IMG/VR virus record: IMGVR_UViG_3300027844_002548
Span: 1-43,178 of that record
Origin: a virus
Strand: one strand, 5' to 3'
Length of the DNA: 43,178 nucleotides
The position numbers and the translations under genes were made by a program. The notes beneath the pieces were generated by a model. It had not been told where the DNA came from. It saw only the letters and a program-made list of their open reading frames with translations, and did not search any database. Below, piece after piece: positions 1 to 14,758 of this stretch. Within the stretch, counting starts at the first letter, position 1, and the number at the start of each line of letters is the position of its first letter.

Positions 1-3
1 ATT

Positions 4-297: not shown

Positions 298-302
298 AAC
301 AT

Positions 303-310
303 TATTTATT
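303..310 (-). promoter_or_regulatory. T4-type late promoter, leaderless arrangement
   Basis: AATAAATA on the minus strand, followed by 5 bases and then the ATG of the PAAR gene. In T4 the octamer spans about -13 to -6, so the predicted transcript would start at the A of the ATG. Confidence 0.5.
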
Positions 311-623: not shown

Positions 624-626
624 TTT

Positions 627-947
627 TTACTCCCATGAATCATCATCAACTGTATACAATGAATATTTTGCTGTTAATTCATCACCTATGTTAATGTTAT
701 TTTGTGTTACTAAATATTTAACTTTTATTTGGTGCCAGAATCCATTGAATACAACACAATTGGGTTCATCTGAATGATTATAAAAAGCACCCAATGCTGT
801 TCTTATATACCCATGTGGAAAATTTTTATTTGCGATATGCACAATTCCTAATACAGTATCTGATTTAAACTCCTTTGTTGCTACTACGCCTAAACCATCT
901 ATACCGCTATCTTTAATAGTTAATCCGTCTGGCAATGGTCTATACAT
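627..947 (-). CDS. SET-domain protein (putative lysine methyltransferase)
   Basis: A 106-residue protein with the SET-domain signatures in order: GLGVVATKEF (residues 18-27, the N-terminal SAM-binding GxG strand), NHSDEPNC (57-64, the canonical NHSxxPN pseudoknot motif) and GDELTAKYSLY (88-98, with the conserved Tyr). SET proteins transfer methyl groups from SAM to protein lysines. This one is a minimal SET core without pre-SET or post-SET cysteine clusters. Its ATG overlaps the MazG stop by one base, so the two are translationally coupled in the early operon. The substrate is unknown; a host or virion protein is equally possible. Confidence 0.8.
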   Translation of the reverse strand: MYRPLPDGLTIKDSGIDGLGVVATKEFKSDTVLGIVHIANKNFPHGYIRTALGAFYNHSDEPNCVVFNGFWHQIKVKYLVTQNNINIGDELTAKYSLYTVDDDSWE

Positions 948-1348
948 TATAAATCGCCTTCCTTGCGATTTTCGCTATGCCAAACATCAAACTTACCGTC
1001 GGGATATCGTTCTTGTAATTTCTTTACATTCTCTGCAACTACTTCATTTGGGTCCAAATTAAGAGCCCTGCAACTGCTAATCCAATACCACATAATATCG
1101 CCCAATTCGCGTTTAAGATGAAATACATCCATAGGCTTGCCTTGAAAAATACACTTCTTAACGATCTCACTAACCTCGCCTCCCTCGCTTGATAATCCAA
1201 TTGCCCCTGTTAACAGTAATGCCATGTTAATGCCTTCTTTTTCTAAATCAGACATTCGTTGCACCATTAGTGCTAATTCATTGCTCTCAACCGAAGTTAC
1301 TGCTTCTACAAAATCTTGATACTTATTTAAGTCTACATTGGCGGCCAT
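947..1348 (-). CDS. mazG: MazG-like nucleotide pyrophosphohydrolase
   Basis: A 133-residue all-alpha NTP-PPase of the MazG superfamily, which hydrolyses (d)NTPs to the monophosphate and pyrophosphate. The metal-binding pattern ExxE followed by ExxD is visible as SSEGGEVSE (E55, E58) and ELGDIMWY (E81, D84). The C-terminal KLQERYPDGKF is also typical. MazG genes are frequent in marine phages, where a role in nucleotide salvage or alarmone control has been proposed. The start overlaps the end of the lipoprotein gene by 16 bases. The gene is expressed early from the sigma-70 promoter at 1592-1620. Confidence 0.88.
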   Translation of the reverse strand: MAANVDLNKYQDFVEAVTSVESNELALMVQRMSDLEKEGINMALLLTGAIGLSSEGGEVSEIVKKCIFQGKPMDVFHLKRELGDIMWYWISSCRALNLDPNEVVAENVKKLQERYPDGKFDVWHSENRKEGDL

Positions 1349-1575
1349 ATTTTATCCTCTTTATAACATATTGCTTTACCTTGTAAGAGATAGAATGCAC
1401 TGCAATCTTTATTCATAACATACGATAATGCATGATCAGCGGTTGTCTTATCGGTTTCAATATATGAGATTACATCCGCTCCTGTTTTAATCCACGATGC
1501 TACTTCAACTATAGGCGGCAATGCGGCACAACCCATACAAGGTAGGCATACTAAAAATACACCAAACTGTTTCAT
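1333..1575 (-). CDS. Small predicted lipoprotein
   Basis: An 80-residue protein. It has a hydrophobic N-terminal segment and a lipobox-like end (LPCMGC, acylated residue would be C16), so export and lipidation are predicted. The mature part (ETDKTTADHALSYV and NKDCSAFYLLQGKAICY) resembles small lipoproteins common in Alphaproteobacteria, in which two cysteines lie near the C-terminus. That suggests capture from a host and a role at the cell envelope, for example superinfection exclusion, but this is inference. It is the first gene of the early operon and follows a consensus sigma-70 promoter by about 20 bases. Confidence 0.65.
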   Translation of the reverse strand: MKQFGVFLVCLPCMGCAALPPIVEVASWIKTGADVISYIETDKTTADHALSYVMNKDCSAFYLLQGKAICYKEDKIWPPM

Positions 1576-1591
1576 TTTTAACTTTTGTTTA

Positions 1592-1620
1592 ATTATAACT
1601 TAATAACGAAAAGATGTCAA
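1592..1620 (-). promoter_or_regulatory. Sigma-70 early promoter of the lipoprotein-MazG-SET operon
   Basis: Perfect -35 TTGACA (1615-1620) and perfect -10 TATAAT (1592-1597) with a 17-base spacer, on the minus strand. It sits just downstream of the tail-fibre stop codon and drives the genes from 1575 down to about 309. Confidence 0.85.
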
Positions 1621-1623
1621 GAC

Positions 1624-3381
1624 TTAAAAACGTTTATTAATAAATCTAATATGCCCTGATACGGGTCTTGTATTACTGTATGTTATAAAACCAAAATACT
1701 GTTTATATGTTGCACTAGTCGAATCATCATCTGCCCAAAATACTTGTGTATCTGCTGTAACCGCCGCGTCCATTTCAACAGTTGTATTACGTGAAACAAG
1801 TGCTACGCTTGGCGTCACGCCATATTTTGTGTTAAACGCGGCATCCGATAATGCTGATGTGCCAGCATACTCATTAGTAATAACTGGGTCACCATAAATT
1901 GTTACTATTGGTGAAACTATAACACCTAAGTCAAAATCTGCACCAACTGCAAAACTAATTGCACCAGTTGCATTCATAATGTCCATTTCATTCCACTGGT
2001 CTAGTATCAATGCGTGACCATAAACATTAGTTCCATCAGCAAGCATAGGCATACTAACAGTTGCTTTACCTGTTCTTACAACATGATAAGTTACTGGGCC
2101 GGCGTCATACCACTCAACAACATAATCCATCTCAAGATTTCTTGTTCCGGAAGTATTATAATAAACACCACCTATATTAACTTGATTTGTTGTTGAACTT
2201 GAACCTAAAAGACGCATTGTTTGCGTACCTCTTACTTGGTTGCCGGCCGATCCTGAAACATTTGTTGGTCTACATTCTCTAAGTAATGGATTTCCAATTG
2301 CTATATTTGACCATAGATCGCCAGCATTATTTTCTGTAACAATCTTAATATTTGATCTTAAATGTGATAATTCTCTAGTTGGTGTGGAACCTTCCATAAG
2401 CCACGAATGGTTAAGAAACTTTGCCATATTACTTGCCGCTACATGACTTCGTGTGCTAAATCCTAAATCACTATCAAATGTATATGATGGTATTGCACTT
2501 TCTGCTGTACTATTACCATCTGTATCATCACCAAATCTTGCAATGCCTTTACCACCTGTTAAACTGCTATTACTATAATAGGCTATTCCTTCTGTAACAA
2601 ATGCGGCATTGATTGCATTGCTTGCTGATGTGATCCATTCTTGCAACCAAGTTTTAACAGTCTTGGCGGCCGCGTTAGTATAACTCGTATCAGTTATTTG
2701 AGCATTATTAAGACCAATAACGCCTTCGCCAGTTGATTCGTCAAAATATAATTGATCAACAGATAGTTTCAAAGTTAAGTCAGTTAAACTGCCACTGCTA
2801 AGATTAAAATTTGCATTAAATGCACTGATAAGATTTGTTTCTAAATCTTTCTTATTTAAGTATACAACATATACGATGTCATTTGATACTAAGGCTTCAA
2901 CTAAATTTAACTGATTAGTGCCACTGATATTATAATCACCAATAACAATTGGTACACCATCTGGATCGCCCGGTAATAATTTTTTATGACTATAATTTGC
3001 TGGAGAGTATTTGTAAATTTTTAATGTTTGGTCATTAATACCAGTTTCCAATGTAATTGAGGCGCCGGCTAATGCACTAAGTCCTGAATGTATTTTTTCA
3101 ACTGTAAACGGGCCTACACCTGTTTCGTTATCAATAATAGAACGCTTTACTGTAAACTCAATAATATTATCAGTAAGCAAAGAATTAACATGGTTATACC
3201 CACCGTTAACATTTCCTACTTGAACTGTTTTATTATGAATACCACCTAATGCATCGGCTGTATCGTTGCCAATAAATAATTCACGAGTGTCAGTAGTTAA
3301 TCCAATTTCCCCCGGCTTTAAAGGAAGCGGAAGATCACGGTGTAACCCGCGGCGTTGTTGCATTCTAGTTATTTTTGCCAC
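1624..3381 (-). CDS. Tail fibre / receptor-binding protein
   Basis: A 585-residue protein with a GTG start at 3381, preceded by GGAG at good spacing. The N-terminus (TRMQQRRG, then LPLKPGEIGLTTDTRELFIGND, residues about 5-41) is the short module that begins many phage tail fibres and major tropism determinants. The rest is Gly/Ser/Thr/Asn-rich and beta-strand-rich with no enzymatic motif, as expected for a trimeric fibre that contacts the host surface. A late promoter (GATAAATA, 3413-3420) stands upstream, consistent with virion expression. Whether this is a distal fibre or a short baseplate fibre cannot be told from sequence. Confidence 0.75.
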   Translation of the reverse strand: MAKITRMQQRRGLHRDLPLPLKPGEIGLTTDTRELFIGNDTADALGGIHNKTVQVGNVNGGYNHVNSLLTDNIIEFTVKRSIIDNETGVGPFTVEKIHSGLSALAGASITLETGINDQTLKIYKYSPANYSHKKLLPGDPDGVPIVIGDYNISGTNQLNLVEALVSNDIVYVVYLNKKDLETNLISAFNANFNLSSGSLTDLTLKLSVDQLYFDESTGEGVIGLNNAQITDTSYTNAAAKTVKTWLQEWITSASNAINAAFVTEGIAYYSNSSLTGGKGIARFGDDTDGNSTAESAIPSYTFDSDLGFSTRSHVAASNMAKFLNHSWLMEGSTPTRELSHLRSNIKIVTENNAGDLWSNIAIGNPLLRECRPTNVSGSAGNQVRGTQTMRLLGSSSTTNQVNIGGVYYNTSGTRNLEMDYVVEWYDAGPVTYHVVRTGKATVSMPMLADGTNVYGHALILDQWNEMDIMNATGAISFAVGADFDLGVIVSPIVTIYGDPVITNEYAGTSALSDAAFNTKYGVTPSVALVSRNTTVEMDAAVTADTQVFWADDDSTSATYKQYFGFITYSNTRPVSGHIRFINKRF

Positions 3382-3408
3382 AGCATAAATCTCCAGTATT
3401 ACTTAATA

Positions 3409-4089
3409 TTAGTATTTATCATAAACCTTGTAATATTCTTTTAGTTTATCAAGCCACTTACTAATATATTCATCAAACTCATCTTGTTCAATAGTAAATT
3501 CTAAATACTTTCCTTCATGTGTAACCATCATAATAACAACTGTTTTTATATCTGTGCCAAATAATTCATTATGTGCCATAGCATATGCTGAACCTTGTAA
3601 AAAATAATCCTCGATCCATTCTCGTTTTTTTACTGAACGAGATGTTTTAAAATCTATAATGGCGGGTTTATCTTTCCAAAGTCCTACACAATCTGTAGTA
3701 CCTGCATAAAGTTCGGGAGAATATAATGATGCTTCTAATCCCCATACTTCATTAACATTTACAAGGCCATTTTCAATAACTACGTCTGCTAATTTAGATG
3801 CTATTTGTCTAAGTAAATTTGTGCCGCCAGGACGCTCTATACCTAAACAATGATTTTCTAAATGTTTATGTGTTGCTGTACCTAAATTTCCGGCTTCTAC
3901 TAAAATACGTTGTGCTTCTTCTGCTCCGACACGAGCTCTCCAAGCATTAATGCCAGACATATCTTTCATGCGGCCAAGGATAGTCGTTACAGAAGGTACC
4001 TTTGCATTTCCTGTATCATAAAGACGTTCGCCATCTTTATCTGTTCGTTTTAATTTGGGATATTCGTATAATTTGTTTATTAATGACAT
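3409..4089 (-). CDS. PD-(D/E)XK nuclease of the RecB/Cas4 type
   Basis: A 226-residue exonuclease-like protein. The full motif set of the family is readable: GTATH (residues 70-74), E119, GTTD (D133), IIDFKTS (D146 and K148) and the downstream QxxxYA (Q165, Y169). These enzymes process DNA ends, and similar proteins are common in marine T4-like phages. The ATG at 4089 lies directly after a consensus sigma-70 promoter with only 6 bases between the -10 box and ATG, and there is no Shine-Dalgarno sequence, so a leaderless early transcript is likely. Roles in recombination or host DNA degradation are both plausible. Confidence 0.85.
   Translation of the reverse strand: MSLINKLYEYPKLKRTDKDGERLYDTGNAKVPSVTTILGRMKDMSGINAWRARVGAEEAQRILVEAGNLGTATHKHLENHCLGIERPGGTNLLRQIASKLADVVIENGLVNVNEVWGLEASLYSPELYAGTTDCVGLWKDKPAIIDFKTSRSVKKREWIEDYFLQGSAYAMAHNELFGTDIKTVVIMMVTHEGKYLEFTIEQDEFDEYISKWLDKLKEYYKVYDKY
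3413..3420 (-). promoter_or_regulatory. T4-type late promoter of the tail-fibre gene
   Basis: GATAAATA on the minus strand, 31 bases before the GTG start at 3381. It lies inside the end of the upstream nuclease gene, so fibre expression can be switched on late and independently. Confidence 0.7.
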
Positions 4090-4095
4090 TCTTAT

Positions 4096-4124
4096 AGTAT
4101 ACTACAAGAAATATCATTTGTCAA
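4096..4124 (-). promoter_or_regulatory. Sigma-70 early promoter of the RecB-like nuclease gene
   Basis: TTGACA (4119-4124), 17-base spacer, TATACT (4096-4101) on the minus strand. The expected +1 coincides with the A of the ATG at 4089. Confidence 0.85.
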
Positions 4125-4132
4125 TAGCCTAT

Positions 4133-4756
4133 TTACCAAGTAACATGCCATTTAAAAGTAGTATTGGATGTCGAGGCATTCTTCTGCCTAATAATTGTAT
4201 AACCTAAATCTACAAAGTTTTTAATTATTTCTGCCATTTGCTGTGTGTATGTTGTATCGATAGCAGTTGCTTGCCATACATTATAATATGTTTTACTTAC
4301 ATCTGTTGCATTTGTTATGCTTGCGGTAATACCAACATCTGATAAAATTGTGCCGGACCCGGCGGCAATTGTTAATGCAAAATTATTATTATCGCTTGAA
4401 ATTTTTAATGTGCCGGCGACTGATGTTTTACTTGCTGTAATACCTGTTAGTGCTAAAGTATTAATATCATCTACTAATGAATTAAGTGTTGTTCCACTAG
4501 CAGTAACCGTAGTACTATTAATAGTAAAAGTATCTGCGGCTGTTATTGTTGGATTATTAATTGTTCCTGTAACGGAAATAGCAGGGGTACTCATTGTCAT
4601 TACAGTGCCGTCGGAAACCGTTGCGTTTAGTAAACTATTACTAACCGCTGTTAAAATCGCTTCCTCAATTACGCGGACTTCCCTAAGTATAACAAGATTT
4701 CCTTGTCCTTGTAACTTAGCGTCGGCGGCACTAATCATTATATTGTTAACAGCCAT
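4133..4756 (-). CDS. Virion-type protein with flagellin hook IN-like motif
   Basis: A 207-residue Thr/Ser/Ala-rich protein. The middle contains TINSTTVTASGTTLNSLVDD and later LKISSDNNNFALTIAAGSG, a pattern like the flagellin hook IN motif found as an inserted domain in many phage structural proteins. The N-terminus (MAVNNIMISAADAKLQGQGN) begins like the 263-residue virion-type protein at 18117-18908. Function as a tail or head surface protein is inferred from composition. It is the last gene of a run beginning at 5825 and is separated from the nuclease gene by that gene's promoter. Confidence 0.6.
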   Translation of the reverse strand: MAVNNIMISAADAKLQGQGNLVILREVRVIEEAILTAVSNSLLNATVSDGTVMTMSTPAISVTGTINNPTITAADTFTINSTTVTASGTTLNSLVDDINTLALTGITASKTSVAGTLKISSDNNNFALTIAAGSGTILSDVGITASITNATDVSKTYYNVWQATAIDTTYTQQMAEIIKNFVDLGYTIIRQKNASTSNTTFKWHVTW

Positions 4757-4764
4757 TTCCTCTC

Positions 4765-5097
4765 CTAAGTAAGTGGATTAGCACTATCTGCCGCTTGTGC
4801 AACGGTATCTTGTGCTTGATCGGCATCTGTTGTAGCATCTGGTAAATTCTCTACTTTTAATGTTATCATTTCTACTGTAGCAGTATTTACTAAATCTGGC
4901 ATATCATTAAGTGTATCAATTAATAATATTTTATCTATATCTATACCATTGTCGTGTAACTTCTTAATAACAAATTCCGTTTCAATTTCAGTTATGCCTT
5001 GATTTTTCATCATGAACAATAGATCGCCAATTTCTGATTTAATTATATCAGCATTGGATCCTTGATCTTCACTAAAAAAAATCTCAGCAAGTTTCAT
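4765..5097 (-). CDS. Unknown acidic protein with capsid-targeting-like leader
   Basis: A 110-residue acidic protein that I do not recognise. It begins MKLAEIFFSED, fitting the leader M-[K/N/R/E]-x-x-[E/D]-[I/L/F] that recurs through this window and resembles the T4 capsid targeting sequence. The middle is helical (DLLFMMKNQGITEIETEFV) and the C-terminus is low complexity (Asp, Ala, Gln). Its ATG overlaps the stop of the gene before it (ATGA type), so the two are translationally coupled. A virion-internal location is inference from the leader and neighbours. Confidence 0.55.
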   Translation of the reverse strand: MKLAEIFFSEDQGSNADIIKSEIGDLLFMMKNQGITEIETEFVIKKLHDNGIDIDKILLIDTLNDMPDLVNTATVEMITLKVENLPDATTDADQAQDTVAQAADSANPLT

Positions 5098-5825
5098 TAC
5101 TTTTCTTCTCTACCTAGTGGTGACTCTGCTGGGCCTGCAACTTCATCGGCGCCGCCCATCATATCTTGAGTATCTTCTGCTGGAACTTCGCCTGGTATTT
5201 CTGCGGCAGGTTCCTCTTCGGGCATCCCAGGCATTTCTGGTTCTGCACCCATATCTGGAGCAGGAACTTCGCCACCTTGTAATGCTAATACTTGATCACC
5301 CATTGCATCTTTAACGCCTATAATAGCGTCTAGAGCAGATTGTAATTGTCCTTTTGCTGTATCATTAAAAGACTGTGCCTGTTGCTGACCTAAGTTATAC
5401 TTAATCTCATCAACTAGTGGCATCAATGCCTTTGTTTGAAGTTCTGCTAAATCTTCTGCCATAGCAGTAAGTTTATCAACCATATCCTGTGCGGCCAAAA
5501 GAATTTGAGCATTTTCAATCTCATCTGTTTGTTCCGAAAGATTAATTGGTTGCACCGTAGCCATAATTGAACCTTCGCTATTACTAAGAAGCATATTTAC
5601 TGCTTCAAGCATTAGCATAGTCTTCACATAACCTTTATCACTATGATATTCATTAAACTTACTATTGGAGGCAATTTTGTTTTTACGAACTTCTAATTTA
5701 CCTTTGGCCTCAATAAGGTTTGTCCTTGACGAGGTATTGTCAACGGAGACACCAAATTCTGAATTAAGCCAACGGTTAATTCTATTAAAGTGTATTGTAT
5801 TATTTGATAAATCGTTTAAAAACAT
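5097..5825 (-). CDS. Probable virion structural protein with Pro/Glu-rich tail
   Basis: A 242-residue protein. Residues 1-160 are mostly helical and coiled-coil prone. Residues from about 185 form a low-complexity Pro/Glu/Gly/Met tail (MPGMPEEEPAAEIPGEVPAE). I do not recognise a named family, but acidic proteins of this build occur in the virion gene clusters of T4-like marine phages. A late promoter (CATAAATA, 5856-5863) and an AGGGGAT ribosome-binding site precede the ATG at 5825, which supports late expression. The stop overlaps the next start. Confidence 0.55.
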   Translation of the reverse strand: MFLNDLSNNTIHFNRINRWLNSEFGVSVDNTSSRTNLIEAKGKLEVRKNKIASNSKFNEYHSDKGYVKTMLMLEAVNMLLSNSEGSIMATVQPINLSEQTDEIENAQILLAAQDMVDKLTAMAEDLAELQTKALMPLVDEIKYNLGQQQAQSFNDTAKGQLQSALDAIIGVKDAMGDQVLALQGGEVPAPDMGAEPEMPGMPEEEPAAEIPGEVPAEDTQDMMGGADEVAGPAESPLGREEK

Positions 5826-5855
5826 GCTTATCCCCTGTTTATTACTGGATAAACA

Positions 5856-5863
5856 TATTTATG
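5856..5863 (-). promoter_or_regulatory. T4-type late promoter before the 242-residue structural gene
   Basis: CATAAATA on the minus strand, 30 bases before the ATG at 5825, overlapping the end of the upstream gene. Confidence 0.65.
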
Positions 5864-6329
5864 ACTTTTGTTTCGAATTTCGAAGTTTCTCTCTTGCGTG
5901 AATCGCCTGATCTCGAGCAATTTCAAACTGTGTTTCCATAAGAACATGTTTTTGCCAGTTTCCTTGTTTCGCATATATTTTGCGTTTTTTGTTATAAAAT
6001 ATTGCTTTATAAAAATGTTTACAAAATTGTTCATTCTCTCGGATAATTTTTTTAACTTTTTCCGATTCTATTGCATTTCCTTTGTTTAATAGATATGCAA
6101 TATTAAATGCAACTTCATACAATTCGATATTATCAACAAGCGTATTATTAGTTTCTTTACAAAAAATTCTATAATGATTAATATCTTCCTTAACAACTTC
6201 CCAAGTATTACCTAAAATACCTTTTTTATGTATAATAGGTTTACCTTCCTCTACAACATTATTAACAACTTTATTGAGAGTAACTTCTAAAGTTTCCAGT
6301 ATCTTTTTCATATCAGTAGCACTAGTCAT
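5859..6329 (-). CDS. Conserved phage protein of unknown function
   Basis: A 156-residue basic protein starting MTSATDMKKILETLE. I chose the ATG at 6329 because GAGG lies 8 bases upstream; an in-frame ATG at 6383 would overlap the neighbouring gene by 19 bases and has no clear ribosome-binding site. The protein is helical with a long Lys/Arg/Glu-rich second half (EFAINY-like core giving way to KAIFYNKKRKIYAKQ and a C-terminal helix). No catalytic motif is seen. A DNA- or scaffold-binding role would fit the charge but is unproven. Confidence 0.55.
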   Translation of the reverse strand: MTSATDMKKILETLEVTLNKVVNNVVEEGKPIIHKKGILGNTWEVVKEDINHYRIFCKETNNTLVDNIELYEVAFNIAYLLNKGNAIESEKVKKIIRENEQFCKHFYKAIFYNKKRKIYAKQGNWQKHVLMETQFEIARDQAIHAREKLRNSKQKS

Positions 6330-6364
6330 AACTAACACCTCGTCATAGTTTATATTACTTATTA

Positions 6365-6817
6365 CTATTGTCGATTCGCCCAAAATTTCTGTTGATGGTA
6401 CTGCTCTTCCGCCCGTACTTTTTTACCAGGAACTGGTTCTAACTCTGATGGTAAACATACACGATGCACATCAAAACTAACTTGTCTACCATAAAAAATA
6501 TCTGTAATATCTGGAACTTGCATAATAGTATATTTGCCATGATAATCAGGTTCTAAGGATTCAATAATACTTTCTTTAATCTCATTAAAATTATCCTCGC
6601 CTTGATCTCTAACCATTATGCAAACTTGCTTTGCTTTTGAAACAGGGTCGTTACCTCTTCCCTGAAAATTTTTTTCTCCTGCTCGTAGCATTGTTTCAAA
6701 TGTTGCGCGGTGGCCTGAATTCCATGGATTAAATCTTCCTAAAAATAATGCTGTTGGTTTTGACCAATCAATTTCTGCATGATATTCCGGAAGGTCATTT
6801 GGATTATAAATCATCAT
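6365..6817 (-). CDS. Cytidylyltransferase-fold nucleotidyltransferase
   Basis: A 150-residue protein of the HxGH nucleotidyltransferase superfamily (adenylyl or cytidylyl transfer). The signature GRFNPWNSGH (residues 27-36) and the later QVCIMVRDQGEDNF and DITDIFYGRQVSFDV match the small domain found in marine T4-like phages, sometimes fused to an adenylylsulfate-kinase domain. Two points are odd. The first His of HxGH is Asn (N33), and the usual ISATxIR loop near the C-terminus is replaced by PGKKVRAEE. Activity may therefore be altered or lost. The acceptor substrate is unknown. Confidence 0.7.
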   Translation of the reverse strand: MMIYNPNDLPEYHAEIDWSKPTALFLGRFNPWNSGHRATFETMLRAGEKNFQGRGNDPVSKAKQVCIMVRDQGEDNFNEIKESIIESLEPDYHGKYTIMQVPDITDIFYGRQVSFDVHRVCLPSELEPVPGKKVRAEEQYHQQKFWANRQ

Positions 6818-7019
6818 TAACTTCTTTAAAATAATGGCCGTCTTGGTCTTCTTGCCTCATTAAAATGCCACGTTTAACTAAATTATTACAATGCTCTAAT
6901 TGTCTTTCGTCTAAATCTGTATGTCGTAGCCGGCCTTCTTTTTGAACCGCTTCAACCAATTCATTTTCTTCATTATTAACCCAAGTCTGAATGCCACCTA
7001 AAATTTCTGTATATTTCAT
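6804..7019 (-). CDS. Small winged-helix-like protein
   Basis: A 71-residue protein. The core (NELVEAVQKEGRL, DERQLEHCNNLVKRG, then DGHYF) follows the helix-helix-wing rhythm of a small winged helix, like conserved short proteins in marine T4-like phages. It starts MKYTEILGGIQ, so it also fits the capsid-targeting-like leader. Its start overlaps the stop of the ADP-ribosyltransferase-like gene (ATGA) and its end overlaps the nucleotidyltransferase start, indicating coupled translation. The DNA-binding suggestion is structural inference only. Confidence 0.5.
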   Translation of the reverse strand: MKYTEILGGIQTWVNNEENELVEAVQKEGRLRHTDLDERQLEHCNNLVKRGILMRQEDQDGHYFKEVNDDL

Positions 7020-7468
7020 TGTTCTACTTCCTCAACATTCTTTGGATCAAAAATAACTATGCCTTCTGCTTGATTATCACTAACAGCACCATCATAGCCT
7101 TTATCTTTTAATCCCATAGTTAGCATACCACCAAACATTGGGTCGTCGCTGTATTCCCATGGTTGAAAACCCATGGATTGTTTTATCTCACCAAAGTCTG
7201 CTCCAGCACTATCTGCCATCTTAAGACCTGGCTTAACTCTATATTCTTTAACTTCGCCGTCTACTTCCTTAGCAAAAAAGTCTGCCATGGACGATGACCA
7301 TGTTAAATAAACACCATTTCCTAATGCTCCTAAACCAGTGCCGCCGCCGCGTCCTGATGATCTTTGGCCGCGATAAAACACACCATCGTTGCGGTCCATT
7401 AAATTATCCCACAACTGGTTTTCAACAATTCGACTTTTAAAGTCTCGCATTAGTTCGGTTAAATTCAT
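7016..7468 (-). CDS. Putative ADP-ribosyltransferase with capsid-targeting-like leader
   Basis: A 150-residue protein. The ATG at 7468 is chosen because AAGGA precedes it and it overlaps the upstream stop (TAATG). Features expected of an R-S-E type ADP-ribosyltransferase appear in order: FYRG (R33), GNGVYLTWSSS (residues 50-60, strand plus STS-like loop, followed by ADFFA), and EGIVIFDPKNV (E135). These enzymes move ADP-ribose from NAD+ to proteins. The leader MNLTELMRDF resembles that of T4 Alt, an ADP-ribosyltransferase packaged in the head and injected to modify host RNA polymerase. Assignment to the fold is moderate; an Alt-like role is inference. Confidence 0.55.
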   Translation of the reverse strand: MNLTELMRDFKSRIVENQLWDNLMDRNDGVFYRGQRSSGRGGGTGLGALGNGVYLTWSSSMADFFAKEVDGEVKEYRVKPGLKMADSAGADFGEIKQSMGFQPWEYSDDPMFGGMLTMGLKDKGYDGAVSDNQAEGIVIFDPKNVEEVEQ

Positions 7469-8163
7469 TAGTCTTCCTTTGATGACCAATCTGGTTTACT
7501 ATCGTATGCTTTCCATTCATCATAATCTAAATATATATCTGAATCTCTATCATAATACTTGCCTTCTTTTGGATCATAATAAACTACTTTACCAGACAAC
7601 GTCATAAACGGGCCTTCTAGGCCTTGGAGTTCTGTATAACGCTCTTTATCAATTGGTGGCATTGTTTGGTAGCCTTCTTCAACCTCAAGTGACTCTTGAT
7701 GTATGTGTCCCATTGCATCACGATGTAATTCTTCAATTGCGGAAAGTAGCATATCGGCCGCTTGGGAAACTTTTCCAAACCCGCCTGTATCGCCGCCGAT
7801 TTCTCCAGTTTTCCTTGCAAGCATACTATCTTCTGAAAAACGTTCTGCAATCCAATCTAGTCTATTTGATACTTCCATAAATTGTTTATGAACAAACCTT
7901 TGATCATCGTCAGATCCTGCATCTTCTCCAATCTCGTCATATTCAATTTTGCCTGGCTCTTTTTTATCCCACCAAGCCTCTTGCATTTCTTCTTCTTTGA
8001 GAACGCCTTTGTCTTTAAGTTCATTAAGAATACGTTGAGTTTCAGTAGCAGGTGTATCTAATTCCTCTACTGTTTCTAAAGTTACAGTATCGTAATGCTT
8101 GTTGAGTCTATCAGCAAGTTCTTTCATCTCATCAATGAGGTTATTATAAGTTTTTACTGTCAT
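7468..8163 (-). CDS. Acidic phage protein of unknown function
   Basis: A 231-residue acidic protein that I do not recognise. The N-terminal half is helical (NLIDEMKELADRLNKHYD and a second helix near residues 110-145). The C-terminus is rich in Tyr and Asp (KVVYYDPKEGKYYDRDSD), a strand-rich motif seen at the ends of several structural-cluster proteins of T4-like phages. An AGGA ribosome-binding site precedes the ATG. The stop overlaps the start of the ADP-ribosyltransferase-like gene by one base, so the two are probably made together; whether they interact is unknown. Confidence 0.5.
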   Translation of the reverse strand: MTVKTYNNLIDEMKELADRLNKHYDTVTLETVEELDTPATETQRILNELKDKGVLKEEEMQEAWWDKKEPGKIEYDEIGEDAGSDDDQRFVHKQFMEVSNRLDWIAERFSEDSMLARKTGEIGGDTGGFGKVSQAADMLLSAIEELHRDAMGHIHQESLEVEEGYQTMPPIDKERYTELQGLEGPFMTLSGKVVYYDPKEGKYYDRDSDIYLDYDEWKAYDSKPDWSSKED

Positions 8164-8172
8164 AATATTATC

Positions 8173-9438
8173 CTATTTGTATTTCTTTCCTTTTTTAGCA
8201 TCTCTTGTTGCTACTGCATACATAACGCTGTCTGCATCTTTTCCATATTTTGAAAAACTCTTCTTATGTTTTTTTAACTTTTTTACATTATGCTCTTTGT
8301 TTTTTTTTTCGGATCCGGAAAGTTTTCTTTCGTCTACGCCTGCCAAATCTATTACATCATGATGATCGTCATTGCCCATATCGCTATATTGTTGCATATC
8401 AGAATCATAACTATAAAAATGCTCTCCTAATTCTTTCATTGGTACAATTATTGGATCTGAGGCTTGCATTACAACTGAATGATCTTTGCCCCATTCTCCG
8501 TGATCGCCAACGTGTCCCATTCCCGATACTCGTGGCAAAAGTTTCTCTGCTTGTGCATACGTTGGAATATTCTTAGCAAGTACATTACCTGCATCACCTT
8601 TCATTTTATAACGGCCTTCGCCGCTTTCAGGATCATTGTCACCGTACCATTCAGCATACTGTCCGTGCCATAAAATTGCATACGGTGCATCGCTCATTGG
8701 CTCGGCATCATCGTCGCCATCGTATGATGCTATTTCATCATCCATATCAAAATCATCATGTGCTTCGTTTGTTTCTTCTTTATGAGCAATAAAATCTTGT
8801 ACCATGTCAAGATTCATATCATGTAACTTTTTCCAATCTGGATCATCGGCCCATTTAATACCTGCTGCCTTATCATCAGGTATTGACCCTTCCATCTCTA
8901 CACGTTTAAAATCATCGGCAGAATCTAAATCATTATCTTTAGCAATTGCATCTAATGCTTTCGTAACACCATCATATTTTTTACCGTTGTACACATAAGG
9001 ATGATCGGCATCAATAATATCACTATGAACTTCATCTCCACCTATATATACTTTAAACACTATACCGCCATCATAGCGGTCGCCGCCAATTTCATAATAA
9101 TTCTCAGGGCCATAGCCCTTTGGCGTAACATCTGTTATTTTATAATCTTTCTTTTTAGACATGCGTTTTGCAACTTCTGGTTTTACATTGCCCTCTTTAT
9201 CAAAAAACTTTGCTAAATGTGGTGGCAATGAAGTTTCAGTAACATTCTTCTTACCAGCAAATAAAGAATCTTTAGGCATATCAATACCATGCGGATTCTT
9301 GTTCTTTTTGCTTTTCTTTTTTGTACCTGTCCGTGAAATCATTCCGCCATCACCGACCGAACTGATCGAAACCGCAATCGAACCTGCACCTGTTGCACCA
9401 GTAGTTGTTTCTTTTAATTTAATCTCATCAATCTTCAT
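8173..9438 (-). CDS. Large charged internal-type protein with capsid-targeting-like leader
   Basis: A 421-residue protein that I do not recognise. It begins MKIDEIKLKET, nearly the same leader as the next gene upstream. A Lys-rich stretch near residues 40-48 is followed by a long acidic region (DDDAEPMSDAPYAILWHGQY near 247-266) and a very basic C-terminus ending DAKKGKKYK. It contains DLAGVDERKLSG, related to the LAG(I/V) motif noted elsewhere in this window. The polar, low-hydrophobic composition suits a core or internal head protein. Its ATG overlaps the previous stop (ATGA). Confidence 0.55.
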   Translation of the reverse strand: MKIDEIKLKETTTGATGAGSIAVSISSVGDGGMISRTGTKKKSKKNKNPHGIDMPKDSLFAGKKNVTETSLPPHLAKFFDKEGNVKPEVAKRMSKKKDYKITDVTPKGYGPENYYEIGGDRYDGGIVFKVYIGGDEVHSDIIDADHPYVYNGKKYDGVTKALDAIAKDNDLDSADDFKRVEMEGSIPDDKAAGIKWADDPDWKKLHDMNLDMVQDFIAHKEETNEAHDDFDMDDEIASYDGDDDAEPMSDAPYAILWHGQYAEWYGDNDPESGEGRYKMKGDAGNVLAKNIPTYAQAEKLLPRVSGMGHVGDHGEWGKDHSVVMQASDPIIVPMKELGEHFYSYDSDMQQYSDMGNDDHHDVIDLAGVDERKLSGSEKKNKEHNVKKLKKHKKSFSKYGKDADSVMYAVATRDAKKGKKYK

Positions 9439-10307
9439 TTCTGTATCCCTGAAAGTTTTTTAAGATATTGAATGTCTTCGCCAACTGGATTTGTGTTTGC
9501 TTGCACTGTCCGGCCGGCCCATATTTTGCTTTTAATATAAGATAACATAGTTATAAATGCGGCATGAACTTCTTTAATTACACTGATCGCAGTAAAAAAT
9601 GCGCCTATTGAGGTACTGGCTGCGGTCTGCATAACCTTATCCATATTATCTTTAAGCATATCAAACGTTCCAATAAAAAAATCTTTAATACTATCAATTG
9701 CTGTGTCGACTGCTAGTCCAACAAGTCCTTGAACTTTTACTTTAATAAATGATATAAAACCATATATGCCTATAATAGTCATAAATCCAGTCCAACCTGT
9801 TATAGCCAACAACGATTGCACCTTGGCCACAAGGAAGTCTTTAACCCATATTACTTTATCAATCAACTCTTGTGGAATTGACCCACCTGATATTTGTTCA
9901 ATAAATTTATTAAAAAGGTTAATTAACGGTTTCCAAACCGTGTTTGTAAAATATTTTTTAATTTGTTGGAGTATTTGTGGCAGGCCATCTGGGTTTGTTA
10001 TAGTATCTTTTATTAGTATAGCGGCATCTTTAAAATCTTTAATACCACCGTTAATGTCATTAACGGTGGTAGTATATTTGTTACCAAGGTAAGTTTTAAC
10101 TGAATCTAACATTCCTTCATAGAGTTCTTGTTCATATAGAATTTGTTCTCTATATTTAAATGAATATACCGATTCAGTTAAAGGTATTTCAACACCTAAA
10201 ACATTTCGAATATGTGATTCTGATAACTCGGCTACCTTATTATATCTAGTAAGACCAAAAGGTGATATAATTGTTGTCTCTTTCAATATAATATCATTTA
10301 TTATCAT
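9435..10307 (-). CDS. Hydrophobic internal-type protein with capsid-targeting-like leader
   Basis: A 290-residue protein beginning MIINDIILKET. Residues about 165-200 form a hydrophobic segment with TGWTGFMTIIGIYGFISF, and further amphipathic helices follow (SIGAFFTAISVI), so membrane insertion is possible. It ends YLKKLSGIQK. The codons for LKKLSGI are shared almost base for base with the end of the gene upstream (22-base repeat) and contain the ribosome-binding site for the next gene. I infer a virion-internal protein that could act on the membrane during DNA entry; no named family is recognised. Confidence 0.55.
   Translation of the reverse strand: MIINDIILKETTIISPFGLTRYNKVAELSESHIRNVLGVEIPLTESVYSFKYREQILYEQELYEGMLDSVKTYLGNKYTTTVNDINGGIKDFKDAAILIKDTITNPDGLPQILQQIKKYFTNTVWKPLINLFNKFIEQISGGSIPQELIDKVIWVKDFLVAKVQSLLAITGWTGFMTIIGIYGFISFIKVKVQGLVGLAVDTAIDSIKDFFIGTFDMLKDNMDKVMQTAASTSIGAFFTAISVIKEVHAAFITMLSYIKSKIWAGRTVQANTNPVGEDIQYLKKLSGIQK
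9445..9466. repeat. 22-base direct repeat, copy 1
   Basis: Identical to 10314-10335. It encodes the C-terminal LKKLSG of the gene ending at 9435 and supplies the CAGGGAT ribosome-binding site for the gene starting at 9438. Confidence 0.8.
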
Positions 10308-10309
10308 TT

Positions 10310-10738
10310 CTAAATCCCTGAAAGTTTTTTAAGATCCGTAATTTGTTCATCAATAAAAAATTCTTGCGGAACCATAAATGTCTTTCCGTCAGCACTTTTA
10401 AATTCTATTTCAGATTCACCTGGTGTTACTGTTGCTTTAAAATCTTTAAGAGCAGTTTGTCCTGCATTTTGTCCAGACTTAACATTAACAACCGCTTCTG
10501 GTTGTTCCATATCAGTTGGTGCTACTGTTCCTTGTGAACCTTGTGCTGTTGGTGAATTACTTTGTGCTGGAACAACGTTAGTTACTCCTTGTAAATTGGA
10601 ACTTGGCTTTGTTTGAGCACCAGAAGTTGCGCCTCCTGTGTTTGCTACATTAGTTTTATTAGATGCCGCTTGTGTTCCTGCTGGGGCACCGGGTGGTTTT
10701 GCATTAATTTCTTCTAAATATTCTCTAAACGTTTTCAT
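10310..10738 (-). CDS. Low-complexity internal-type protein with T4-like capsid targeting leader
   Basis: A 142-residue protein. The leader MKTFREYLEEINAK is the closest match in this window to the T4 internal-protein targeting sequence (MKTYQEFIAE). Residues about 15-90 are low complexity (Ala, Gln, Ser, Thr, Pro, Asn), then a short beta-rich part precedes a C-terminal DLKKLSGI. This build (leader, disordered linker, small domain) is what one expects of an internal head protein. Its ATG overlaps the stop of the basic protein gene, and its own stop lies 3 bases from the next start. Confidence 0.55.
   Translation of the reverse strand: MKTFREYLEEINAKPPGAPAGTQAASNKTNVANTGGATSGAQTKPSSNLQGVTNVVPAQSNSPTAQGSQGTVAPTDMEQPEAVVNVKSGQNAGQTALKDFKATVTPGESEIEFKSADGKTFMVPQEFFIDEQITDLKKLSGI
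10314..10335. repeat. 22-base direct repeat, copy 2
   Basis: Identical to 9445-9466. Here it encodes the C-terminal LKKLSG of the gene ending at 10310 and provides CAGGGAT ahead of the ATG at 10307. Confidence 0.8.
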
Positions 10739-11076
10739 GTTCTATGCCACCATTTTACGCCGCCTTTTGATCGTCCTGGCGTCTTAGGACGAGTACTTTT
10801 ATTCAATTGCGTAATCCTCTTCGTAATTGGATTAAATTTCTTTGACCTTGCAGTTTTTCGTGCAATTCGTTTTCCTAATCGTGCTTTAGTTTTTCTCAAC
10901 GTAAAGCGTTTCTTCATATCTATTGGTTTAGAACACGAAGCCGCTGTAGCAACTAATCTTCCTTTGCGCCAGCCACTAGTACAACGAAATTTTTGCACAA
11001 CTTTTTTACCACGGCGAGCCCAGACTCGCCGTGCTTCAACAATAGGTTCTTCACCATATAGATCTGTTAGATTCAT
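10735..11076 (-). CDS. Very basic DNA-binding-type internal protein
   Basis: A 113-residue protein, over a quarter Lys plus Arg, of a type found across marine T4-like phages (core KKVVQKFRCTSGWRKGRLVA and CSKPIDMKKRFTLRKTKARL). Two Cys (residues 32 and 48) flank the basic middle. The leader reads MNLTDLYGEEPIVEARR. The site IVE|A fits the T4 gp21 prohead protease consensus (I/L-x-E before A/G/S), so removal of the leader and packaging with the DNA are predicted. The ATG has no Shine-Dalgarno sequence and follows a late-promoter octamer by exactly 5 bases. Confidence 0.65.
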   Translation of the reverse strand: MNLTDLYGEEPIVEARRVWARRGKKVVQKFRCTSGWRKGRLVATAASCSKPIDMKKRFTLRKTKARLGKRIARKTARSKKFNPITKRITQLNKSTRPKTPGRSKGGVKWWHRT

Positions 11077-11081
11077 ACGTG

Positions 11082-11089
11082 TATTTATG
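11082..11089 (-). promoter_or_regulatory. T4-type late promoter, leaderless arrangement, basic protein gene
   Basis: CATAAATA on the minus strand, then 5 bases, then the ATG at 11076. Predicted +1 is the A of ATG. Confidence 0.65.
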
Positions 11090-11111
11090 CGAAAAGAAGA
11101 TTTGGAAATTA

Positions 11112-11381
11112 TTATTTAAAGATGGTTGACAACATTGCGCCAAGTAATGTAATAAAAACAGCGCCGATGCCCCAAAAGAAAACTCTTTCTAAACGAGTAA
11201 TTTGATTACTATTATTATCAATTTTTTCAGTTAAACGTGTTTCCGAGTCGTCAATGTGTTGATGCAATGCGCCATATCTTTCGCTACAAATCGCCACATG
11301 GGCTTCGAGGCTGTCAGCCTCAATATCATATGTATCGCCAGAATGAACATATAACTTTTTAACTTTTGGATCGTCTGCCAT
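11112..11381 (-). CDS. Coiled-coil protein with C-terminal membrane anchor (XhlA/holin-like)
   Basis: An 89-residue protein. Residues about 45-68 form a coiled coil (DDSETRLTEKIDNNSNQITR) and residues about 69-88 one membrane helix (FFWGIGAVFITLLGAMLSTI). This N-out coiled coil plus C-terminal helix layout matches the XhlA or holin-accessory type of small phage membrane protein. A late promoter (CATAAATA, 11404-11411) and AGGAG ribosome-binding site support late expression. A lysis role is plausible, but no endolysin lies beside it in this window. Confidence 0.5.
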   Translation of the reverse strand: MADDPKVKKLYVHSGDTYDIEADSLEAHVAICSERYGALHQHIDDSETRLTEKIDNNSNQITRLERVFFWGIGAVFITLLGAMLSTIFK

Positions 11382-11403
11382 TAATAAACTCCTATAACAT
11401 TAC

Positions 11404-11411
11404 TATTTATG
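11404..11411 (-). promoter_or_regulatory. T4-type late promoter of the coiled-coil membrane protein gene
   Basis: CATAAATA on the minus strand, 22 bases before the ATG at 11381, leaving room for the AGGAG ribosome-binding site. Confidence 0.65.
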
Positions 11412-11796
11412 GTGAATTAGTCATCACAAAATACGTATTTTTGATTTTTAAACCTTTTGTTTCAATATGTTTAAATTTATCAATAACTGGCATACCATTA
11501 AATTCTTGCATTAAGGTTTTTATATTAATAGCACCGACGTGTTCGATTGCAAAAGACCACATCCAAATATTCATTACTTTATTTTTGTATTCAGATCCAA
11601 ACTTAAATTTTGTTGTTTTTTGTCGTTTTTTTTCAGGAAGATTTGAGCCCAAAGGTTGAGCTCGCATACTAATACCATTAATAATAGTATCCCAATTTTT
11701 TTGTGAGTTATCTTTTCTTCTTATTGAATGCGAAATATCTATTAAAGTATATAAAGTAAACCACGTTGCGTGTTCAAGATTAAACTCATGCATCAT
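11407..11796 (-). CDS. Conserved marine T4-like phage protein of unknown function
   Basis: A 129-residue protein. The start (MMHEFNLEHATWFTLYTLID) and the middle (DNSQKNWDTIINGISMRAQP) match a family I remember from T4-like cyanophages, where it sits in the virion gene region; no function is known to me. It is followed on the same strand by the coiled-coil membrane protein gene. The octamer AATAAATA (11805-11812) ends 8 bases before the first ATG, so the mRNA leader would be about 3 bases at most. Confidence 0.6.
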   Translation of the reverse strand: MMHEFNLEHATWFTLYTLIDISHSIRRKDNSQKNWDTIINGISMRAQPLGSNLPEKKRQKTTKFKFGSEYKNKVMNIWMWSFAIEHVGAINIKTLMQEFNGMPVIDKFKHIETKGLKIKNTYFVMTNSP

Positions 11797-11804
11797 AACA
11801 AAGA

Positions 11805-11812
11805 TATTTATT
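11805..11812 (-). promoter_or_regulatory. T4-type late promoter, near-leaderless
   Basis: AATAAATA on the minus strand, 8 bases before the ATG at 11796. It lies directly downstream of a terminator, so it would restart transcription there. Confidence 0.55.
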
Positions 11813-11819
11813 GGCCAAG

Positions 11820-11848
11820 AAAAAACCCCTTCCGAGGAAGGGGTTTTA
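11820..11848 (-). terminator. Rho-independent terminator after the small structural gene
   Basis: Perfect inverted repeat CCCCTTC-CTCG-GAAGGGG flanked by A and T runs, with TTTTTT on the 3' side of the minus strand. It ends transcription of the gene at 11869-12183. The flanking T run on the other side would also allow some plus-strand termination. Confidence 0.9.
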
Positions 11849-11868
11849 AACTCTTTCCATACTAAAAA

Positions 11869-12183
11869 TTAGTATGCGAAGTCAGCAACTGAATCTGAAC
11901 TAAGATCGATACTGTCAACTGTACCTAATGCACGAAGTGAAACTTGTAGTGCGGCGGCTGTCCATGCTGTGTCGCCTTCTACTGCGAAACGGAAACCGGC
12001 TGTCCCTACTACACCTAGGATTACAACGGTTGACTTTGTTGCAACCATTTCTAGGATCTTCTGAATTGTGCTATCAACACCCAACTTTGCTGTTGCATTG
12101 CCGGCTATTGTTACTGTGAAATGTGATAGTGAACCTACTAGTACTTGACCTGAGGCTACTCCACCATTAACTCTTGCTACCAT
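11869..12183 (-). CDS. Small virion protein, probably abundant
   Basis: A 104-residue Ala/Val/Gly/Thr-rich, beta-strand-type protein (GQVLVGSLSHFTVTIAGNA, then STVVILGVVGTAGFRFAVEG). No family name is recognised. It is a complete single-gene transcription unit: late promoter TATAAATA (12241-12248), a 50-base leader with AGGAG, the gene, and a strong terminator 20 bases after the stop. Such an arrangement is typical of a protein needed in many copies, for example a head decoration or tail tube type protein. The exact place in the virion is not known. Confidence 0.65.
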   Translation of the reverse strand: MVARVNGGVASGQVLVGSLSHFTVTIAGNATAKLGVDSTIQKILEMVATKSTVVILGVVGTAGFRFAVEGDTAWTAAALQVSLRALGTVDSIDLSSDSVADFAY

Positions 12184-12240
12184 TGGATTTTCTCCTGTTA
12201 TATCATTTGCATTAACACGATTTGTATCAATGCTTACATG

Positions 12241-12248
12241 TATTTATA
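12241..12248 (-). promoter_or_regulatory. Consensus T4 late promoter of the small structural gene
   Basis: Perfect TATAAATA on the minus strand, 57 bases before the ATG at 12183. The leader contains AGGAG at correct spacing. Confidence 0.85.
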
Positions 12249-12283
12249 CAATCGAAGGAAAAATTTACTACTAAGATATTTTA

Positions 12284-13081
12284 TTATGTTGAATATTCGC
12301 GTCTTTTGCTTTGTTTTCGGTTAAAACGCCTACCTAAAGCAAATCCACCAAGGGCTGTTGCAACCGGTAAACCTATACCAATAGCAATCTTAGACCGTGT
12401 ACTCATACCGCCTTTTGTTCCGGCTGGTTGTGCTAATTCCATATCACGTGGGGCAACGACTTTACCTTTCTTATTAACTGGAATAAATTTCTTCTCTTTA
12501 GATAATTTCATTAAGACTGGATATAATTCCGATCTACGGGCACGTATACGAAAGGCTTGCATACATCGCGTAATAATTAATGTTTTTTGTCCATGCTTTA
12601 AGTTAGACCAATCTGATGCTAATCTACGAATCGCTTTATATTGTGCATTATCTACACGCAATTGTTTCTCAAATCTAAATAGAAATTGACCATCAACTTG
12701 GGCATTAACTTTTCCTTTAGCAGAATATGCTAACCATTGTTTCAACTGAGGTTGGTTAACATTCAATGAATTACGAAAAATTTGGCTGGCTTCTTGGTCT
12801 GCCATTAATGTATTTGTATCATCTGTACCGACTAGACCGCATAACAAAACATACATATCTGTACCGTTGGTACGGAATACATTCCAGTTAGAATACATAC
12901 GAGTCTTATGTGCATAAGCCATACCCGTTGGAGCATATTTGAATTCATTTTTAAGAATTGTTATAGTACAGGCATAAAGGAAAACTAGATCAGCGGCATC
13001 TTTAGCAGTAAATTTCTTTATCTGCTTTTTTTGCCTTACTAATCTGCTTTCACAGAGTTCATTGATAAATTCTAATTCCAT
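12284..13081 (-). CDS. Internal-type basic protein with C-terminal hydrophobic helix
   Basis: A 265-residue protein. I chose the ATG at 13081 (MELEFINELCESR). An earlier in-frame ATG at 13141 would overlap the upstream gene, and the octamer GATAAATA ends exactly 5 bases before 13081. The leader fits the capsid-targeting pattern and is close to T4 Alt (MELITELFDE). The body is mixed alpha and basic (AFRIRARRSELYPVLMKL). A Gly-rich hydrophobic segment, IAIGIGLPVATALGGFALG, near residues 233-251 is followed by an Arg/Lys tail. Related proteins exist in marine T4-like phages without known function. Confidence 0.6.
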   Translation of the reverse strand: MELEFINELCESRLVRQKKQIKKFTAKDAADLVFLYACTITILKNEFKYAPTGMAYAHKTRMYSNWNVFRTNGTDMYVLLCGLVGTDDTNTLMADQEASQIFRNSLNVNQPQLKQWLAYSAKGKVNAQVDGQFLFRFEKQLRVDNAQYKAIRRLASDWSNLKHGQKTLIITRCMQAFRIRARRSELYPVLMKLSKEKKFIPVNKKGKVVAPRDMELAQPAGTKGGMSTRSKIAIGIGLPVATALGGFALGRRFNRKQSKRREYST

Positions 13082-13086
13082 AATAG

Positions 13087-13094
13087 TATTTATC
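13087..13094 (-). promoter_or_regulatory. T4-type late promoter, leaderless arrangement
   Basis: GATAAATA on the minus strand, 5 bases before the ATG at 13081. It sits in the short gap between two genes with no ribosome-binding site. Confidence 0.6.
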
Positions 13095-13112
13095 TGATTG
13101 GCGTTTTCGATT

Positions 13113-14736: not shown

Positions 14737-14758
14737 TTTAACAATTCCTGATTATATA

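What the first reader, a model, noticed from the sequence alone, without database searches (positions are those of the whole stretch)
7016..7468. Compact Alt-like ADP-ribosyltransferase candidate
A 150-residue protein with R33 (FYRG), a GVYLTWSSS strand-loop and E135 in EGIVIFDPKNV, the order expected of R-S-E ADP-ribosyltransferases, plus a leader like that of T4 Alt. T4 Alt is packaged and modifies host RNA polymerase at entry. This could be a minimal version doing the same in a marine phage.
Basis: partly seen in the sequence, partly recalled or inferred. Interest (0 to 1): 0.75.

Follow-up and report, generated by a model that had tools for sequence, protein, structure and literature searches.

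The report
Leader-tagged phage ADP-ribosyltransferase-fold cargo protein

Summary
The ORF is real (7016-7468, minus strand, 150 aa; dN/dS 0.04-0.51 in 8 pairs of relatives). No curated family names the window protein. Its predicted structure (pLDDT 81) matches ADP-ribosyltransferase (ART) folds. Profile comparison ties it to the polyvalent-protein ARTs (Pfam ART-PolyVal, H-Y-[EDQ] clade): E 5e-10 to phage DC33, against shuffle level for T4 Alt. The leader claim is strengthened: 18 of 22 intact non-giant relatives carry a short leader ending [L/I]-x-E. Nine consecutive genes of one relative share one such leader. A T4-type prohead protease lies in a contig of the same phage. Neighbouring genes are syntenic with a virion cluster of jumbo phage Atu_ph07 shown by mass spectrometry. 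Best reading: head cargo of polyvalent-ART descent with a novel R-Y-[E/D]-G active site. Activity and target are unshown.

The parts
7016..7468 (-). ART-fold head-cargo protein, 150 aa (precursor)
   Evidence: ORF; ART fold; profile match to ART-PolyVal
7421..7468 (-). leader residues 1-16 (MNLTELMRDFKSRIVE), predicted capsid-targeting and cleavage sequence, cut after E16
   Evidence: [LI]-x-E rule of the T4 gp21 protease; leaders of relatives
7370..7372 (-). R33 codon, strand 1; invariant 25/25; where the H-Y-[EDQ] clade has His
7307..7309 (-). Y54 codon, strand 2; invariant 25/25
7064..7066 (-). E135 codon, candidate catalytic acid; E15/D6/I5 of 26
7061..7063 (-). G136 codon; column of the canonical catalytic Glu; invariant Gly 26/26
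6804..7019 (-). next gene, overlaps the ART gene by 4 bp; homologue of Atu_ph07 gp046 'virion structural protein' (PHROG 16215)
6365..6817 (-). nucleotidyltransferase-like protein with GRFNPWNSGH motif, two genes downstream; the same domain class is fused to the ART in six relatives
5097..5825 (-). homologue of virion structural proteins of jumbo myoviruses (PHROG 14154)
7468..8163 (-). upstream gene, translationally coupled (TAATG overlap); unknown
8173..9438 (-). neighbour with leader MKIDEIKLKE
9435..10307 (-). neighbour with leader MIINDIILKE
10310..10738 (-). neighbour with leader MKTFREYLEE, nearest in the window to T4 MKTYQEFIAE
10735..11076 (-). neighbour with leader MNLTDLYGEEPIVE; the site before the conserved domain is kept as IVE, ILE, VVE or VIE while the leader varies

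Best explanation
The gene encodes an internal head protein with an ADP-ribosyltransferase fold. It is made late with neighbouring virion proteins (inferred from overlapping genes and synteny). The 16-residue leader docks it in the prohead core and is cut after I-V-E16 by the T4-type prohead protease (inferred from the motif, its conservation and the protease gene). The 134-residue domain (17-150) is then packaged with DNA and injected (inferred). In the cell it binds NAD+ in the ART cleft with R33 on strand 1 and Y54 on strand 2, and most likely transfers ADP-ribose to a host macromolecule, with E/D135, one residue before the usual catalytic position, as candidate acid (inferred). By descent it is a divergent branch of the polyvalent-protein ARTs, not an Alt. 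The target is unknown.
For: Fold: AF2 model pLDDT 81.4, pTM 0.75; 21 BFVD matches at E<=1e-3, those with informative names mostly MuF-fusion, ART-PolyVal-like or PARP proteins; in the VIA second look nearly every named row is, by my knowledge of the entries, an ART-superfamily structure (MbcT Z 6.7, diphtheria toxin 6.3, AcrIF11 5.3, PARPs about 5). Ancestry: hhalign to phage DC33 ART (itself Pfam ART-PolyVal 2.5e-22) E 5.4e-10, Prob 96.6; L011 ART2 94.6%; 60 shuffles reach at most 1.35%. Cargo: leaders ending [LI]-x-E in 18 of 22 intact non-giant relatives, although leader length varies 8-16; nine consecutive L054 genes, the ART among them, share M-x-L-R-[RHY]-R-x-[YHF]-[LI]-x-E; window ORFs show [LI]xE at residues 8-16 in 17 of 53 against 119 of 1193 internal windows; S77 protease in the 72.8 kb contig holding the identical gene and in the records of L042 and L056; synteny with Atu_ph07 gp044-gp050, inside its CDS 31-76 cluster, 29 proteins of which were found by ESI-MS/MS. 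Active site: R33 25/25, Y54 25/25, acid at 134 or 135 in 24 of 26. A catalytic acid in the loop before this strand has a precedent in AcrIF11 (D115; D146/E147).
Against: The canonical Glu column is Gly in 26/26, and 2 of 26 (L053, L057) have no acid at 134 or 135, so the domain could be a non-catalytic NAD+ binder. Single-protein fold matches are weak: best PDB Foldseek E 1.4e-3, VIA Z at most 8, and only two of five AF2 models exceed pLDDT 70. Pfam gives nothing for the window protein and at best E 0.0038 (below cut-off) for 3 of 19 relatives. Two relatives (L036, L037) end the leader in MHE, L042 in VFE, and L055 has no such leader. The leader enrichment is not significant in 13 of 23 loci. 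The S77 protease is not in the window itself and was found in 3 of 26 records, most of them fragments. No virion of this phage has been analysed.
Confidence: 0.6

Rival explanations
1. A compact member of the T4 Alt (R-S-E) family that ADP-ribosylates host RNA polymerase at entry.
For: Leader type like Alt MELITE and the internal proteins; an Arg on strand 1 as in R-S-E ARTs; T4-like phage.
Against: No profile match to T4 Alt beyond shuffles (Alt tested as a single sequence only); no S-T-S motif, the serines vary and Y54 is invariant as in the H-Y-[EDQ] clade; closest profiles are ART-PolyVal.
Confidence: 0.07
2. A packaged pseudo-ART: it keeps the fold and binds NAD+, ADP-ribose or a nucleic acid but does not transfer ADP-ribose, for example as a sponge for NAD-derived immune signals or as a structural head protein.
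For: Canonical catalytic column is Gly in 26/26; residue 135 varies E/D/I; two members lack any acid at 134 or 135.
Against: Strong conservation of R33, Y54, K83 and D126-G127 and of an acid at 134 or 135 in 24 of 26; catalytic acids in this loop have precedent in AcrIF11.
Confidence: 0.22
3. A packaged NAD+-consuming enzyme (NADase or NAD+ phosphorylase, RES-like) that acts on the cofactor pool rather than on proteins.
For: RES toxins are among the best PDB folds (MbcT E 0.018, Z 6.7; Xre-RES Z 5.2); by recollection RES toxins also pair a strand-1 Arg with a Tyr.
Against: By recollection RES uses a helix Glu and a C-terminal Ser; the helix position here is Phe/Ala (alignment). The nucleotidyltransferase-like partner suggests NAD synthesis only by loose analogy (one search names it cytidyltransferase).
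Confidence: 0.1

Closest known systems
ART-PolyVal / polyvalent-protein ARTs (Tox-ART-HYD2 clade, PF18760; phage DC33 giant protein)
   Same: Fold, strand-2 G-x-Y-[LF]-T pattern with Tyr, the GYDG...IVIFDP ending, profile match E 5e-10; predicted packaged and injected effectors (PMC5512222, passages read)
   Different: Strand-1 His is Arg (25/25); catalytic Glu/Asp column is Gly (26/26) with the acid usually one residue earlier; a 134-residue stand-alone domain with a short leader instead of a domain in a giant protein
T4 Alt (RNA polymerase ADP-ribosyltransferase)
   Same: ART-superfamily enzyme carried in the head of a T4-type phage, with a short leader fitting L/I-x-E cleavage
   Different: R-S-E site, 682 aa, no profile similarity found
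T4 internal proteins IPII/IPIII
   Same: Leader MKTYQEFIAE; relatives have MKTFKQHITE, MKTFKTLLTE, MKTFKQMLKE
   Different: Mature parts unrelated as far as examined
Atu_ph07 gp381
   Same: Leader MKWQDLSE followed by a compact ART-like domain (Pfam ART-PolyVal E 4e-4, below cut-off); by place and length probably the Atu_ph07 protein among the BFVD matches
   Different: Keeps the strand-1 His (YHGS); no profile match to this family
AcrIF11
   Same: Small ART-fold phage protein; fold match Z 5.3; acid in the loop before the last strands
   Different: Anti-CRISPR, not head cargo; H20/Y46 in the Pae2 homologue

Membership tests
T4 Alt / R-S-E ARTs | Arg on strand 1 | tested here: met
   R33 in 25 of 25
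T4 Alt / R-S-E ARTs | Ser (S-T-S) on strand 2 | tested here: not met
   Strand 2 reads Y-L-T-W; S58 in 2 of 25
T4 Alt / R-S-E ARTs | Glu at the catalytic column | tested here: not met
   Gly136 in 26 of 26; residue 135 is E15 D6 I5
T4 Alt / R-S-E ARTs | Sequence homology to Alt | tested here: inconclusive
   No match beyond shuffles, Alt given as a single sequence
ART-PolyVal / H-Y-[EDQ] clade | ART fold and profile homology | tested here: met
   hhalign E 5.4e-10 to DC33 ART, shuffle control, BFVD matches
ART-PolyVal / H-Y-[EDQ] clade | Pfam PF18760 above its cut-off | tested here: not met
   0 for the window protein, 3 of 19 relatives weakly, best E 0.0038
ART-PolyVal / H-Y-[EDQ] clade | His on strand 1 | tested here: not met
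   Arg in 25 of 25
ART-PolyVal / H-Y-[EDQ] clade | Tyr on strand 2 | tested here: met
   Y54 in 25 of 25
ART-PolyVal / H-Y-[EDQ] clade | E, D or Q on strand 5 | tested here: not met
   Gly at the column; E/D one residue earlier in 21 of 26
T4-type internal head protein (capsid targeting sequence) | N-terminal leader ending [LI]-x-E | tested here: met
   IVE16; 18 of 22 intact non-giant relatives
T4-type internal head protein (capsid targeting sequence) | Prohead protease of S77 type in the same phage | tested here: met
   E 9e-19 in the contig of L030, which holds the identical gene
T4-type internal head protein (capsid targeting sequence) | Presence in the virion and actual cleavage | not testable with these tools
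   Needs virion mass spectrometry
ADP-ribosyltransferase (activity) | NAD+-dependent transfer of ADP-ribose | not testable with these tools
   Needs an assay

The most novel reading that the evidence does not exclude
A separate ART subfamily with an R-Y-[E/D]-G active site, outside the three described clades (H-H-h, H-Y-[EDQ], R-S-E), acts as leader-tagged head cargo of T4-like marine phages. The shared [L/I]-x-E leader marks a whole set of co-packaged effectors, to the point that nine consecutive genes of one phage carry the same 11-residue tag, so that the injected protein set of uncultured phages can be read from sequence.
Probability: 0.4. Interest if true: 0.68.

Novelty: new variant of a known kind. 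Interest (0 to 1): 0.52.

Why it matters
Head-packaged ARTs were known as Alt or as domains of giant polyvalent proteins. A compact, leader-tagged version shows how the same effector domain can be delivered alone, fused to a nucleotidyltransferase-like domain, or inside a giant protein. The active-site replacement asks whether ADP-ribosylation can work with Arg in place of His and Gly in place of the usual Glu. The leader rule gives a way, testable by virion proteomics, to predict the injected proteins of uncultured marine phages.

Tried and rejected
Sequence searches with no answer: Pfam, PHROGs, NCBIfam and PDB sequences for the window protein; tblastn of the window protein in phages, of L058 ART in phages, of L055 ART in plasmids; a scan of 84,980 bacterial and archaeal genomes with A3 found 91 pattern matches and no relative. 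Megablast of window 1-20000 in phages: none.

Alt ancestry: rejected; Alt was given as one sequence, so a distant link is not excluded. Reading E135 as an invariant catalytic Glu: rejected. Atu_ph07 gp381 as a close relative: no profile match.

Second structure job, the fused L042 protein: pLDDT 47.7, pTM 0.38, too poor to search; no fold is claimed for the nucleotidyltransferase half. Its reading as an NAD-making enzyme is not supported: PHROGs names it cytidyltransferase and Pfam CTP_transf_like is at its threshold.

S78 protease (PF04586): 0 of 6 records. S77 protease: 2 of 16 and 1 of 10 records, not in the 42 kb contig of L054. In one search I chose the cluster and the control genes after seeing the leaders (10 of 18 against 2 of 19), so it is illustrative only; one search took ORFs by length without choice, but its overlap rule dropped some genes (for example it shows 0 of 3 in L053 although its ART has a leader). 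Foldseek against the PDB gave no match at E <= 0.001.

Literature: ART-PolyVal is named in one paper of the library (listing only). Searches combining capsid targeting sequence with ART and nucleotidyltransferase, or with prohead protease, LxE and cyanophage terms (listings only) showed no paper whose title or abstract start describes this family; absence from print is claimed no further than these searches.

Full report
Observation. It is a conserved gene: 31 viral-contig loci hold a relative plus one domain-level match in a giant protein (L011). dN/dS is 0.04-0.51 in 8 of 8 pairs. No relative was found in 84,980 prokaryote genomes, and the window protein has no match among 50,697 phage records.

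Phage. The window's large terminase is nearest to jumbo myoviruses of the T4 supergroup (PA5oct, Phosso, Atu_ph07, GAP32; 46-54% identity). PHROGs finds UvsX, gp32-type single-strand binding protein, DnaB-type helicase, primase and several virion proteins. Three contigs carry the identical ART protein. One of them, 72.8 kb, also holds a T4-type S77 prohead protease (E 9e-19); so do the records of L042 (4e-27) and L056 (2e-38). The S77 protease was found in 3 of 26 records searched, most of them fragments, and not in the window itself.

Fold. AlphaFold2 with 11 relatives gave pLDDT 81.4 and pTM 0.75 for the best model; the five models range from 57 to 81. Against predicted viral structures there are 21 matches at E <= 1e-3, led by a MuF fusion protein and including several proteins named ART-PolyVal-like, PolyVal ADP-ribosyltransferase or PARP. 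Against the PDB no match reaches 1e-3; the best is an ejection-complex protein of cyanophage A4 (1.4e-3), then the RES toxin MbcT and AcrIF11. The second look lists, by my knowledge of the entries, almost only ART-superfamily structures below the cyanophage chain. Each Z value is middling, but their agreement makes the ART fold likely.

Ancestry. A profile of 19 relatives aligned to the polyvalent ART of Limnohabitans phage DC33 (itself Pfam ART-PolyVal, 2.5e-22) with E 5.4e-10 and to a domain of L011 with 6.5e-8. T4 Alt gave score 15.5, within the range of 60 shuffles of the DC33 sequence (maximum 18.7). The polyvalent ARTs are described as His, Tyr, Asp on strands 1, 2 and 5, and Alt as R-S-E (PMC5512222, passages). 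Three clades are recognised: H-H-h, H-Y-[EDQ], R-S-E (PMC9503650, section 27).

Active site. Over 25 sequences with the column (26 for the C-terminal part) R33 and Y54 are invariant, K83 and D126-G127 too, and S130 is kept in 25 of 26. Residue 135 is E in 15, D in 6, I in 5; three of the five with I have E at 134, and two (L053, L057) have no acid at either. In both polyvalent-ART alignments the catalytic Glu falls on G136, which is Gly in 26 of 26. The pattern R-Y-[E/D]-G fits none of the three clades. Another domain of L011 also has Arg with Tyr but keeps the Glu, so the Arg may have come first (inference). AcrIF11 shows that the acid may sit in this loop and be Asp or Glu (PMC12421852, passages). 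I therefore think catalysis is more likely than not, but a pseudo-enzyme is a serious rival.

Leader. T4's prohead protease cuts after L/I-x-E, and ten leader residues of IPIII suffice for packaging (PMC9026906, section 9 and passages). Of 22 non-giant relatives (the window protein included) with an intact N-terminus, 18 have [LI]-x-E ending at residue 8-16, just before the ART domain or the fused domain, counted from the correct inner Met in L053. The misses are L036 and L037 (MHE), L042 (VFE) and L055 (no such leader); L045 and L057 are cut at the N-terminus and left out, as are duplicates. Examples: MKTFKQHITE, MKTFKTLLTE, MRFHHLIE, MKQFKDFITE, MLLRQLTE. In unselected ORFs of the window the motif occurs at residues 8-16 in 17 of 53 against 119 of 1193 internal windows (p 9e-6); over 23 loci it is 91 of 359 against 800 of 8779, significant (p < 0.05) in 10 of the 23 loci and not in 13. 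In L054 nine consecutive genes, the ART among them, begin with variants of M-x-L-R-R-R-x-Y-L-A-E and then diverge (in two of them the leader starts at an inner Met). This is hard to explain except as a shared targeting tag.

Neighbourhood. Genes 5097, 5859, 6804, 11407/11869 have homologues in Atu_ph07 gp044-gp050 and, 5859 apart, in Phosso. The Atu_ph07 genes lie in CDS 31-76, where 29 proteins were found in virions by ESI-MS/MS (PMC6102473, passages); its record calls gp044 and gp046 virion structural proteins. In six relatives the ART is fused behind a leader and a nucleotidyltransferase-like domain, with the linker kept as (V/I)-(I/S)-E-S in five of the six. In the window, L025, L053 and L057 such a gene is adjacent or two genes away. 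The partner's chemistry is not known.

Verdict. The finding is real and better than stated on delivery, but wrong on class. It is a leader-tagged head-cargo protein of polyvalent-ART descent with an altered active site. Fold: likely (about 0.9). Packaging: likely (about 0.85). NAD+-dependent ADP-ribosylation: about 0.6. RNA polymerase as target: unsupported.

Noticed in passing
L054:5372-10283 (IMGVR_UViG_3300028840_006412): Nine consecutive genes share an 11-residue leader M-x-L-R-[RHY]-R-x-[YHF]-[LI]-x-E and then diverge; one is the ART. No S77 or S78 protease was found in the 42 kb contig.
   Followed up: partly
L040:4177-5178, L041:7404-8420, L042:7410-8420, L043:7257-8471, L044:7401-8426, L047:7299-8315: Fusions: leader, nucleotidyltransferase-like domain (GRMNPPTIGH), ART; five of six keep (V/I)-(I/S)-E-S at the linker, perhaps a second cleavage site.
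   Followed up: partly
L011:148-4863: 1571-aa protein combining several ART-like domains (one Arg-type, one His-type) with a polyA-polymerase/tRNA nucleotidyltransferase domain.
   Followed up: partly
window 10735-11076: Small protein whose leader varies between relatives while the site (IVE, ILE, VVE, VIE) and the following domain are kept; another likely head-cargo protein.
   Followed up: partly
window 13113-14504: PHROG 455 homologue (N-terminal half); a relative in L053 shows KWDGAPAI, which recalls nucleotidyl-transferring ligases (from memory); relatives carry leaders MKATEFLTE, MRARELLTE, MISFRELTE.
   Followed up: no
L069:9485-11821 (Atu_ph07 gp053): Leader MKWNDLNE followed by NPIYRGM; another leader-bearing protein with an Arg-Gly motif in the virion cluster.
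   Followed up: no
L030:6032-7186: The homologue of window 8173-9438 is shorter here (the ATG ORF matches 381 of 421 aa, 99.7% identical), perhaps a frameshift or an assembly error.
   Followed up: no
L072 (Limnohabitans phage DC33, PQ492659): Record is filed under Inoviridae but is 39 kb long with a 9.4 kb gene holding a polyvalent ART; the taxonomy looks doubtful.
   Followed up: no
window 40767-40985: Repetitive ORF (KQKQVQKQ repeats) inside the 835-aa ORF 40063-42570 on the same strand in another frame; that ORF begins MKLTELKNKKMYLYE.
   Followed up: no
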